DNA from: Bacteroidota bacterium | GTDB taxonomy: Bacteria > Bacteroidota > Bacteroidia > Cytophagales > UBA9547 | NCBI GenBank assembly: GCA_004293915.1 | Contig: RDZG01000079.1 | Location: 1-64,000 of the forward strand | Reading direction: 5' to 3' | Length of the DNA stretch: 64,000 nt | Part shown: positions 10,327-13,388 of the stretch, piece after piece | How positions within the stretch are numbered: the first letter of the stretch is position 1 | Layout: each line of letters begins with the position of its first letter | Notes under the pieces: generated by a model | The model's input: the letters and a program-made list of their open reading frames with translations, nothing else | The model's database searches: none | What the model was told of the DNA's origin: nothing | Position numbers and translations under genes: made by a program

Positions 10327-10385
10327 ATCATTTTATTTCGTGGTAATTTTTATAACCTTACACACCCACCAGTGAAACCGTCTGG

Positions 10386-10513
10386 CTTGTACCACACACA
10401 GCCCAACAATACGTTTTAATTTGATGAATGATACTAATTTGAAACATATTTGGTGCAAATATGCATCTTTAAACCTAAAGTGTTGGTGGAGTAGGTATAT
10501 AGCTTCAGTTTAT
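10386..10513 (+). repeat. 128-bp direct repeat, left copy
   Basis: About 128 bases that recur ungapped at 13077-13204, with roughly 80-85% identity in the 98-base core (compared by eye, for example TGATGAAT, ACTAATTTGAAACATATTTG, TGTTGGTGGAGTAG). The two copies flank the nucleotidyltransferase/antitoxin/ATPase island. This copy has a 35-codon ORF starting at the ATG near 10425 that is interrupted in the other copy, so coding is unlikely. Confidence 0.7.
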
Positions 10514-10538
10514 ATGAAATGCCACTAAGGGTAATACG

Positions 10539-11165
10539 TTATCTCAAATATTCAGAAACTTTTTGGCTAATTACAAGCTTTACAGATTCCCACGTTTGGT
10601 TTTTGAGGCTTATTGGGTCTGGACTTTCTTCTGCCTCTGCAAAATAGCTAATTGCCTGAGGTACGGTAATAAAAAGATTTTGAGAAGCGTATTTTTGTTT
10701 GTGAAAGGTAATAAAATCAGATACAGAATAATGTTGTAATAGTTCTGCAATATCCCAAAAGTCTTTTTTCTTAGCTCTACCCAATACAGCTTGTACTTTC
10801 ATGGCAATAATGTCTTCTGGAGCAAACATGCGTATTCCCTCAATTTCGATTGTTGGTTTAATAAGTGGGTGTGGAAATCGAATCATATCTACTTTTACTT
10901 CTTGTATATTGGCAAATATACCAAAATGCATAGGTTTGTCTTCGAGGATAATTTGATTGCTATATTTTGCAAACAGTGATTTTGTAATAAATTGATTATC
11001 AAATGGTTTTGTAGAAAATAAATCTAAATCTACCGATATTCTGTGTCCATACAAAAGGGATAAAGCTGTTCCTCCAACAAGATAAAAATCTTGAAGCTCT
11101 GGCATAGCAATCAGCTGCTTTAATAAGGAAAAAGCGTGGGGGTCGACTGTCTGAGTTTGTAACAT
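10539..11165 (-). CDS. AbiEii-type nucleotidyltransferase toxin
   Basis: A 208-residue protein of the AbiEii/AbiGii toxin (DUF1814) nucleotidyltransferase superfamily. The fingerprint GG-T-A-L (residues 31-35, LVGGTALSLLYG) is followed by RISVDLDLFS with the catalytic Asp pair D46-x-D48, then VKVDMI for the third acidic strand and IRMFAPEDIIAMKVQAVLGR, a conserved helix of the family. AbiEii toxins modify nucleotides or tRNA and act in abortive phage defence with an upstream antitoxin. It overlaps the small gene before it by 46 bases. It lies inside the repeat-flanked island. C-terminal helices look complete. Confidence 0.8.
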   Translation of the reverse strand: MLQTQTVDPHAFSLLKQLIAMPELQDFYLVGGTALSLLYGHRISVDLDLFSTKPFDNQFITKSLFAKYSNQIILEDKPMHFGIFANIQEVKVDMIRFPHPLIKPTIEIEGIRMFAPEDIIAMKVQAVLGRAKKKDFWDIAELLQHYSVSDFITFHKQKYASQNLFITVPQAISYFAEAEESPDPISLKNQTWESVKLVISQKVSEYLR

Positions 11166-11416
11166 CTAAATGCTTCTAAAGGTTGTAGTATAACGGCACT
11201 TGCCAAATACATTCTTGTTTCAGGCAAAAATTTGGCATTGAGCAGGGCTTGACTTACTTTTTCATCGCCATAAAAACGCCTACAGTTGCGGATGTCTTCT
11301 ACATCTCCACGCTCAAAAACTCTTTCAATAACAAAATTGGCATACTTTTCATAATCTAATTTTTCAAAATCTATATCCCAAAAAATTCGCTTATTTAAAA
11401 TCGGTTTTTCTATCAT
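11120..11416 (-). CDS. small antitoxin-like partner (DUF6922-like)
   Basis: A 98-residue protein that begins ILNKRIFWDIDFEKLDYEKY and continues into a conserved-looking helical segment (FVIERVFERGDVEDIRNCRR). This is the layout of the short DUF6922-type proteins commonly encoded just ahead of AbiEii-like nucleotidyltransferases in Bacteroidota. It is co-directional with and overlaps the toxin gene. I infer an antitoxin or cofactor role. The last ~20 residues overlap the toxin start and are less conserved in character. Confidence 0.65.
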   Translation of the reverse strand: MIEKPILNKRIFWDIDFEKLDYEKYANFVIERVFERGDVEDIRNCRRFYGDEKVSQALLNAKFLPETRMYLASAVILQPLEAFRCYKLRQSTPTLFPY

Positions 11417-11497
11417 AACAAAGCAAAGTTAATAAAAATCAAGAATTATTGAATACTGTAATTTTTAAAGTAAATATTTTATGGGCTTTCTATGCTA

Positions 11498-12916
11498 TTA
11501 AAATAAATCTTCTAACTTCAATTCTTGGGTAATGGTGCTGAGGTAATATTCGTTTTTCTGCACCCCATTGCTGCAAAGCAGGGTAATAAATATATTTTTT
11601 TTGGTTTTAGATTTCTCTTTGAATATTTCTCTTTTCAATTCAAGCTGCTGTGCATACTCTTTGCTTATCTCAAATGGAGCATCTCTAAATTTTAATTCAA
11701 AAAGATGTAAGCAATTGTCGCTTCGCTCAAGAATAAGGTCTATTTGAGCCCCTTTTTCGGTTTTTGAACCTTTATATACCCACGAGTATTCATTGGTGAT
11801 CATGCCCTGAATGCCTAATACATGCTTTATTTTGAGTATATGCCTGAAACATACATTTTCAAATGCAAATCCAGACCATATTTTAAATGATTGGGTATTG
11901 GTTATATACATCCAACTATTGTTTGCTTTGGAGTTTTGTAAAAATTTGAAATAGAAGATCGAGTATTCATCCATTAAGCGAAACAGTATATCTTCTTTTT
12001 TATTGCCTAATGGCATGATTTGCATCAAAAATCCACATTGAACGAGTTCGTCTAACAGCATACTGAATCCACCACCACTACTCAAGCCTGTACTTTGTAT
12101 AATTTCATTTCTAGTCATCCCTTTGTGAGCGAGAGCCAGTACTCCCACTATTTTTTGATGCAAGTCACTGTTTTTGAATAGAGAAGCGTATAGGTTTTTA
12201 AACTCATTTTTGAGCGATGCCTGTGGTACAAAAAAAAGTTGATCTAAAATTTGCGGCACACTCAAGCCAGGCTTAATATCTTTGAGGTAATAGGGTACGC
12301 CTCCTATGCACATATATAATAATGCTAAGTCTTTGGCGGTAAGCCTCACTTGCTGCATGGCTAGATACTGCTTGGTTTCGCTTAATGTAAATGGTTTTAG
12401 GTGGATATGGCAAGTTACTCTATTATGAAGCCCTCCTTTGTTGTTGATTACTTTGTCTATAATCCATGATGCTGCCGAGCCACATATTACCAATAGTATG
12501 TCGTTTCTTTGGGTGCAAAAGGTGTTCCAAAAATTGTCTAAAGCAGCCAAAAACCCCGATTTTGGAGTTTCAAACCAAGCCACTTCATCGAGAAAGATTA
12601 CTTTTTTTTGTTTCCCTTTTAGTGATTTGATATGTTGCTTGAGTGAATGAAATGCTTGCAGCCATGTATTTGGCATGGGTGGTTTTTCTCCATTTATTTT
12701 TTCAATTAATGACAACCAAAAATTTTCTAATTGTTGTGGCATTTCTTTCTCATGAATCCCACTACAATCAAACACCATTTTAGATTCGTACACCTGACGA
12801 ATAAGGTAGGTTTTGCCAATTCTACGCCTGCCATACATTGCCAAAAACTCTGAATTTGAGCTTTCAACCAATCGTTGCATGATATGTATTTCGTCTTCTC
12901 TGCCTGCAACTTTCAT
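11498..12916 (-). CDS. AAA-type ATPase of the DUF234/archaeal-ATPase family
   Basis: Started at the ATG giving MKVAGREDEI (472 residues). A start 48 bases further out would lie within the operator palindromes. The N-terminal ATPase domain has the P-loop YGRRRIGKT (residues 28-36), Walker B KKVIFLDEVAWF and a sensor-like ILLVICGSAASWI. These are followed by a winged-helix region (GMTRNEIIQSTGLSSGGGFS) and a C-terminal PD-(D/E)XK-like part (KGAQIDLILERSDNCLHLFE with ELKFRD). This arrangement is typical of the widespread prokaryotic ATPases with DUF234-type C-termini. Cellular role unknown; mobile or defence association is common. Confidence 0.8.
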   Translation of the reverse strand: MKVAGREDEIHIMQRLVESSNSEFLAMYGRRRIGKTYLIRQVYESKMVFDCSGIHEKEMPQQLENFWLSLIEKINGEKPPMPNTWLQAFHSLKQHIKSLKGKQKKVIFLDEVAWFETPKSGFLAALDNFWNTFCTQRNDILLVICGSAASWIIDKVINNKGGLHNRVTCHIHLKPFTLSETKQYLAMQQVRLTAKDLALLYMCIGGVPYYLKDIKPGLSVPQILDQLFFVPQASLKNEFKNLYASLFKNSDLHQKIVGVLALAHKGMTRNEIIQSTGLSSGGGFSMLLDELVQCGFLMQIMPLGNKKEDILFRLMDEYSIFYFKFLQNSKANNSWMYITNTQSFKIWSGFAFENVCFRHILKIKHVLGIQGMITNEYSWVYKGSKTEKGAQIDLILERSDNCLHLFELKFRDAPFEISKEYAQQLELKREIFKEKSKTKKNIFITLLCSNGVQKNEYYLSTITQELKLEDLF

Positions 12917-12929
12917 TTTAGTAATAGAT

Positions 12930-13031
12930 TTATTATTCGCCAAATGTACTAAAAAAATATACAACTTGGCGAATAATAAAATTATTATTCGCCAAGTTGG
13001 CTAAAAAAATATGCAACTTGGCGAATAATAA
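12930..13031 (-). promoter_or_regulatory. twin long palindromes ahead of the ATPase gene
   Basis: Two 50-base units (12930-12979 and 12982-13031), each an inverted repeat with left arm TTATTATTCGCCAA, right arm TTGGCGAATAATAA and an A-rich centre with ATATxC. In the second unit the arms are perfect over 18 bases (TTATTATTCGCCAAGTTG). They begin 13 bases upstream of the ATPase start codon. Their position suggests operators for autoregulation or, if transcribed, strong hairpins that control translation. The matching dyads also occupy the only room for the promoter. Confidence 0.65.
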
Positions 13032-13076
13032 AAATTTATATCTTCGAGGGTTAAGCCCCCGAAAGGTAATATCTCG

Positions 13077-13204
13077 CTTGTAACAAAAACAGTAAAACGT
13101 CAAGCTTTAATTTGATGAATAATACTAATTTGAAACATATTTGGTGCAAATAGGTGGCTTTAAACAAAAAATGTTGGTGGAGTAGTGTTATATCTTTAAT
13201 CTAT
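13077..13204 (+). repeat. 128-bp direct repeat, right copy
   Basis: Right-hand copy of the repeat at 10386-10513, same orientation and same length. It has a TAG where the left copy's short ORF reads on. With its partner it brackets about 2.56 kb containing three minus-strand genes. Neither copy has inverted termini or a transposase nearby. Confidence 0.7.
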
Positions 13205-13388
13205 AATCCCAGTGTTGAAGTCAGGAAGAAGTCCCACAAAAATGGGACTTTTCATTCTACAGGGTAACCCTTTCTCTGAAAGGTTGCTCCTCAGCAGAGC
13301 CTTTTTCCTTTTTGTATTATGTTATAAAAATAGTACGACTTTTAGAAAAATTTACCAACCATTTTTGACCACATTACCTTTAACCCAA
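13205..13388 (+). terminator. hairpins between repeat and queA
   Basis: AAGTCCCA-CAAAAA-TGGGACTT (13229-13250), followed by TTC, forms an 8-bp stem that can act as a terminator, better on the plus strand than for the queA transcript. Farther on AAAGGTTGCTCCTCAGCAGAGC followed by CTTTTT (near 13278-13305) makes an imperfect hairpin. Read on the minus strand it is the nearest structure downstream of queA. The rest of the interval shows no gene. Confidence 0.45.

What the first reader, a model, noticed from the sequence alone, without database searches (positions are those of the whole stretch)
10386..13204. 128-bp direct repeats bracket an AbiEii/ATPase defence-like island
Ungapped direct repeats of equal length flank a minus-strand block with an AbiEii-type nucleotidyltransferase, its small partner, and a DUF234-type ATPase. 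Neighbouring genes outside are core or secreted proteins. No transposase is present. This suggests insertion or excision by homologous recombination, or an undescribed element.
Basis: partly seen in the sequence, partly recalled or inferred. Interest (0 to 1): 0.6.

Follow-up and report, generated by a model that had tools for sequence, protein, structure and literature searches.

The report
Secretion-gene tails flanking toxin–ATPase island
The two "direct repeats" around a small toxin-like and defence-candidate gene island are leftover tail ends of a secreted-protein gene that have recombined, not the ends of a mobile element; the less ordinary part is a family of ATPase–nuclease genes that mostly carry long palindromes in their own promoter.

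Summary
The repeat is real: 134 nt, ungapped, 80% identical, at 10381-10514 (A) and 13072-13205 (B), with only these two copies in the genome. It is neither an att site, an IS end nor an RNA. The last 48 nt before a shared stop codon encode YLVQIxxFKxKxxVE*, the end of a type IX secretion (T9SS) sorting domain. In a congeneric genome (G002) the position of A is held by an intact T9SS gene, followed by the same AbiEii-DUF6922 pair and a truncated end of the ATPase. Repeat A is a mosaic: its left half matches only B (80%), its right half only G002 (91%), and the junction falls in the T9SS tail. So recombination between secreted-protein gene tails shaped the locus. No dedicated element or excision is shown. 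The island consists of two independent modules: a conserved AbiEii-DUF6922 toxin-antitoxin-like pair, and a PDC-S27 ATPase with ORC/Cdc6-like fold and a C-terminal nuclease motif. By-product: PDC-S27 genes carry ~50-bp interrupted palindromes over their promoter (55/84 versus 19/293 controls), probably autoregulatory operators. In one Spirosoma-like genome the ATPase is deleted and the palindromes remain.

The parts
10381..10514 (+). Direct-repeat copy A: decayed 3' end of a T9SS secreted-protein gene; mosaic (left half B-like, right half orthologous to G002)
10447..10494 (+). Last 16 codons of the sorting domain in A (YLVQICIFKPKVLVE*), the mosaic junction zone
   Evidence: 83% to G002, 85% to B
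10539..11165 (-). AbiEii-type nucleotidyltransferase (toxin-like)
   Evidence: PF08843 E 2.8e-19; 83% identical in G002
11120..11416 (-). DUF6922 small protein, overlaps AbiEii start by 46 nt; probable antitoxin partner
   Evidence: PF21956 E 1.3e-23; paired directly upstream in most AbiEii loci examined
11498..12916 (-). PDC-S27 ATPase: ORC/Cdc6-like AAA+ with C-terminal PD-(D/E)XK-like motif
12930..12979 (.). Promoter-proximal interrupted palindrome TTATTATTCGCCAAATG..CAACTTGGCGAATAATAA; contains -7 box TACATTTG on the minus strand (12941-12948)
12982..13031 (.). Second interrupted palindrome TTATTATTCGCCAAGTTG..CAACTTGGCGAATAATAA (18-bp arms)
13072..13205 (+). Direct-repeat copy B: decayed T9SS gene tail on the queA side
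13138..13185 (+). Last 16 codons of the sorting domain in B (YLVQIGGFKQKMLVE*)
   Evidence: 75% identity over 16 aa; 85% DNA identity to G002 tail

Best explanation
Repeats A and B are decayed 3' ends of T9SS secreted-protein genes (sorting-domain tails) on either side of a two-module island: an AbiEii-DUF6922 toxin-antitoxin-like operon and a PDC-S27 ATPase-nuclease. Shown: the tail coding sequence, the intact T9SS gene at the A position in G002, and the mosaic structure of A. Inferred: an ancestor had a T9SS gene next to the island as in G002 and a related tail (B) beyond it. Unequal crossing-over or gene conversion between the two tails then made A, because B-type left half plus original right half is exactly the joint expected when the island is duplicated by a crossover between its flanking tails. 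The T9SS gene body was later lost. The island modules work independently of the repeats: AbiEii is a nucleotidyltransferase toxin presumably restrained by DUF6922, and the ATPase probably represses its own promoter by binding the palindromes over it.
For: Only two copies in the genome. G002 contig L159 is 89.5% identical to window 10446-11612, from the second half of A through AbiEii and DUF6922 into the ATPase 3' end. L159 ORF 150-1265 is a Por_Secre_tail protein (PF18962 E 7.2e-12) ending YLVQIGSFKQKVMVE*; left 66 nt A-B 80%, A-G002 20%; last 48 nt all about 85%; 45 nt after the stop A-G002 91%, A-B 40%. B alone matches the G002 tail at 81% over 68 nt, E 1.6e-14. A whole-genome search with the G002 sorting domain recovers B among about 60 T9SS tails of the own genome. 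No RNA family, no folding signal (z -0.75 to 0.49). The AbiEii pair sits elsewhere without the ATPase in G001 and others, and the ATPase elsewhere without AbiEii.
Against: The coding tail is only 16 codons. The 66 nt to its left has stops in the same frame and no clear match to other sorting domains, so its origin rests on being contiguous with the tail. The G002 contig ends 3.2 kb on, so its far side cannot be compared. The order of events (duplication versus gene conversion, direction) is not determined. Neither autoregulation nor toxin activity was tested.
Confidence: 0.75

Rival explanations
1. The island inserted as a unit and the 134-nt repeats are a long target duplication or the scar of Campbell-type integration.
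For: Some other PDC-S27 loci are bracketed by direct repeats made of host gene 5' ends: L073 270 nt 95%, L069 65 nt 95%. Direct repeats >=80 bits in tight geometry: 7/78 ATPase genes versus 4/256 other genes in the same loci.
Against: A's left and right halves have different closest relatives, which a simple target duplication does not predict. AbiEii-DUF6922 is already beside an intact T9SS gene in G002. No integrase or transposase seen in the island frames. Repeats only 80% identical.
Confidence: 0.17
2. An undescribed mobile element uses the 134-nt repeats as ends or att sites.
For: Equal-length ungapped repeats bracketing accessory genes; uneven conservation with a 47-nt core.
Against: Unit found nowhere else in its genome nor in full in 148 relatives, absent from phage and plasmid collections; contains a T9SS gene tail; no terminal inverted repeats or fold.
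Confidence: 0.05
3. The palindromes of the ATPase are target or end sites for mobility of the ATPase-nuclease (homing-like), not operators.
For: Palindrome copies also lie just after the stop codon in several loci (L055, L117, L138, L104, L074, L079, L119); invariant D, E, K of a PD-(D/E)XK motif; profile similarity to TnsC.
Against: Palindromes overlap the -7 promoter box in 28/60 versus 4.6 in shuffles; downstream palindromes are not enriched over other genes; in G103 versus Spirosoma 48-14 the site is vertically shared and the ATPase deleted, not inserted.
Confidence: 0.2

Closest known systems
T9SS C-terminal sorting domain (Por_Secre_tail, PF18962)
   Same: Repeat copies end in YLVQI..FK.K.LVE* and a stop; the orthologous position in G002 is an intact PF18962 gene
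   Different: In the window both copies are isolated decayed tails; the upstream part carries stops
AbiE type IV toxin-antitoxin system (AbiEii)
   Same: AbiEii nucleotidyltransferase domain, two-gene overlapping operon
   Different: Partner is DUF6922, not an AbiEi-type antitoxin; protein shorter (208 aa)
PDC-S27 (PADLOC phage defence candidate; ATPase_2 family)
   Same: Full-length match E 1.1e-185; AAA+ plus C-terminal nuclease-like motif
   Different: Promoter palindromes are not mentioned in the literature I could search; antiphage activity untested
Archaeal Orc1/Cdc6 initiators and PABY2304 (2qen)
   Same: Foldseek best matches; AAA+ fold; Orc1/Cdc6 bind inverted repeats near their own gene (own knowledge)
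   Different: Carries a PD-(D/E)XK-like C-terminus; no replication context

Membership tests
T9SS sorting-domain gene tail (PF18962) | Por_Secre_tail domain match | tested here: inconclusive
   Met for the orthologous G002 gene (E 7.2e-12); the window copies keep only the last 16 codons, too short for the domain model
Mobile element with terminal direct repeats or att sites | Transposase, integrase or relaxase inside | tested here: not met
   Only AbiEii, DUF6922 and ATPase genes in the island
Mobile element with terminal direct repeats or att sites | Relatives with a single copy and no island | tested here: inconclusive
   Locus not conserved in G001; G002 keeps the AbiEii part next to an intact T9SS gene
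Integron attC or structured RNA | Complementary ends, stable fold or family match | tested here: not met
AbiE type IV toxin-antitoxin | AbiEii nucleotidyltransferase | tested here: met
AbiE type IV toxin-antitoxin | AbiEi antitoxin partner | tested here: not met
   Partner is PF21956 DUF6922, conserved as partner in relatives
AbiE type IV toxin-antitoxin | Toxin neutralised by partner | not testable with these tools
   needs expression assay
PDC-S27 | Match to PADLOC profile over full length | tested here: met
   E 1.1e-185, residues 18-488
PDC-S27 | Phage defence activity | not testable with these tools
   candidate only; PMC12988326 lists experimental validation as pending for most such candidates
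PD-(D/E)XK nuclease | Conserved D...ExK active-site motif | tested here: met
   D393, E407, K409 invariant in 54 homologues
PD-(D/E)XK nuclease | Nuclease fold of the C-terminal domain | not tested
   whole-protein model (pLDDT 92.7) not searched domain by domain

The most novel reading that the evidence does not exclude
PDC-S27 ATPase-nucleases form a coherent, so far undescribed protein-plus-palindrome system: each gene carries its own set of ~50-bp palindromes over its promoter, sometimes in tandem arrays of up to six and sometimes copied behind the stop codon. The protein reads these sites (as Orc1/Cdc6 does) to control its own dose and possibly its copying or cutting of DNA, and the unit tends to sit between recombining duplicates of host gene ends.
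Probability: 0.3. Interest if true: 0.65.

Novelty: new member of a known kind. Interest (0 to 1): 0.35.

Why it matters
It removes a tempting false lead: long direct repeats around defence-like islands in Bacteroidota can simply be the tails of secreted-protein genes, of which this genome has about 60. Such tails may still act as recombination anchors that reshape these islands. The promoter palindromes of the PDC-S27 family give a concrete, testable handle on a widespread defence candidate of unknown mechanism.

Tried and rejected
Repeat as RNA gene or riboswitch: no Rfam match, fold z-scores -0.75 to 0.49. Repeat as dispersed element: other hits in the own genome and in three relatives are short, and those inspected are chance matches, almost all inside genes such as uvrC. 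Phage or plasmid origin: no match. Reading the repeat's open frame LMNDTNLKHIWCK as a protein: no support; the real coding signal is in another frame and covers only the 3' part. Loose pattern GCCAA..TTGGC as a palindrome census: its reversed control is CpG-biased, discarded. Co-evolution of palindrome half-site with protein sequence (Mantel): not significant overall, r 0.07-0.11, p 0.05-0.14. L057 119-nt flanking repeat looks like a MITE with inverted ends, unrelated. L103 285-nt repeat is a decayed gene duplicate 4 kb apart, not a tight bracket.

Full report
Observation. The window has two direct, ungapped copies of a 134-nt sequence, A 10381-10514 and B 13072-13205, 80% identical. A whole-genome search finds no other copy; the remaining hits are 16-39 nt long and, where inspected, almost all lie inside genes. 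In 148 relatives only three fragments of 25-45 nt appear, all inside genes. Differences between A and B are clustered: 47 nt carry one mismatch while the other 87 nt carry 26 (permutation p about 0.0008). No Rfam family fits and neither strand folds better than shuffled sequence.

Island content. On the minus strand lie an AbiEii nucleotidyltransferase, a DUF6922 protein overlapping it by 46 nt, and an ATPase_2-type protein that matches the PADLOC candidate PDC-S27 at E 1.1e-185. No transposase or integrase is seen. The AbiEii-DUF6922 pair is a conserved module: in about 20 of 24 AbiEii relatives examined, DUF6922 lies directly upstream, usually with overlapping frames. AlphaFold2 gives a confident ATPase model (pLDDT 92.7, pTM 0.90). 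The closest solved folds are PABY2304 (2qen) and archaeal Orc1/Cdc6, and the profile also touches TnsC of Tn6677. D393, E407 and K409 are invariant in 54 homologues, as expected for a PD-(D/E)XK nuclease.

What the repeats are. A search for AbiEii relatives brought in contig L159 of G002, a congeneric genome. It is 89.5% identical to window 10446-11612, starting in the middle of A and running through AbiEii and DUF6922 into the last ~115 nt of the ATPase gene, where it diverges. In L159 the A-like sequence is the 3' end of an intact gene with MBG domains and a Por_Secre_tail T9SS sorting domain (PF18962, E 7.2e-12), ending YLVQIGSFKQKVMVE*. In the window A reads YLVQICIFKPKVLVE* and B reads YLVQIGGFKQKMLVE*. 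Searching the G002 sorting domain against the own genome finds about 60 T9SS tails, and B itself among the weakest. At the DNA level B matches the G002 tail at 81% over 68 nt, E 1.6e-14.

Mosaic. Compared in register: the 66 nt left of the tail are 80% identical between A and B but only 20% between A and G002. The 48-nt tail is 83-85% identical among all three. The 45 nt after the stop are 91% identical between A and G002 but 40% between A and B. A therefore joins a B-type left half to the original island flank inside the tail. That is the joint expected when a crossover between two T9SS tails in direct orientation duplicates the island between them; gene conversion would give the same joint. 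The events and their order are inference.

Recombination is supported, but the repeats are not the ends of an element. The locus is not syntenic in G001. In G002 the ATPase is truncated and the AbiEii pair persists. Other AbiEii-DUF6922 pairs and other PDC-S27 genes occur without each other.

By-product: promoter palindromes. Between the ATPase start (12916) and B are two ~50-bp interrupted palindromes (12930-12979, 12982-13031). I fetched 80 homologues from named genomes, mostly Bacteroidota with some Planctomycetota, Chlamydiota and others. Interrupted palindromes scoring >=11 lie within 150 nt upstream of 55/84 ATPase genes, versus 19/293 other genes with intergenic upstream regions in the same loci (odds ratio 27, p 1.7e-28; the homologues are related, so this p overstates independence). 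Arm sequences differ between homologues but remain complementary. The Bacteroidetes -7 box TANNTTTG (scan also allowed a one-base longer spacer) falls inside 28/60 palindromes versus a mean of 4.6 in shuffles. Tandem arrays of up to six occur.

Specificity of the palindromes. In 391 genomes of the order, the window's palindrome pattern occurs twice or more only in G000, G001 and G103. In G000 and G001 it is at the ATPase. In G103 the pair lies in a region syntenic with the ATPase locus of Spirosoma sp. 48-14, with flanks 75-78% identical. There the ATPase coding sequence has been deleted, leaving the palindromes and about the last 16 codons. Thirty loci, one per genome apart from those at the known ATPases, were fetched; most sites fall inside long open frames and none of these loci holds an ATPase.

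Bracketing repeats in the family. Twelve of 81 ATPase loci have an upstream-downstream repeat of >=80 bits, versus 1 of 6480 cross-locus pairs. In tight geometry it is 7/78 versus 4/256 other genes. Some are palindrome copies (L055, L117, L138, L104). Others are 5' ends of host genes (L073, L069). These units therefore often sit among small duplications, but no common mechanism is shown.

Literature. PDC-S27 appears only as an uncharacterised candidate (PMC12988326). Searches for palindromes with this ATPase family, for DUF6922, and for T9SS tails as recombination sites found nothing relevant.

Noticed in passing
L249 (G103:C12:806000-818000) versus L060: Natural deletion of the ATPase coding sequence at a syntenic site; promoter palindromes and about 16 terminal codons remain.
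   Followed up: yes
L069 4723-4787, 6437-6593, 9010-9166: Three copies of the 5' end of an SDR gene (a capsule-type nucleotide-sugar enzyme) separate an ATPase cassette and DUF1016/YhcG-like genes; looks like stacked insertions at one gene start.
   Followed up: partly
L073 4617-4885 and 6624-6893: 270-nt, 95% direct repeat (5' end of an MBL-fold gene) bracketing the ATPase with its palindromes.
   Followed up: partly
L055 2439-2602 and 4018-4181: Promoter-palindrome block of the ATPase duplicated behind its stop codon as a 164-nt direct repeat.
   Followed up: yes
L159 2187-2390 (G002:C144): ATPase 3' remnant of about 115 nt next to AbiEii-DUF6922: the ATPase has been lost in this congener.
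   Followed up: yes
G000:C81:43790-43918: Fragment resembling the queA 3' end (67% identity, stops inside) elsewhere in the own genome.
   Followed up: no
window 13229-13256: Hairpin AAGTCCCACAAAAATGGGACTT followed by TTCATT just right of B, plus-strand orientation; possible terminator of the former T9SS gene.
   Followed up: no
L057 (G002:C273) 119-nt repeats at -646 and +3315 of the ATPase: Repeat with inverted ends, MITE-like.
   Followed up: no
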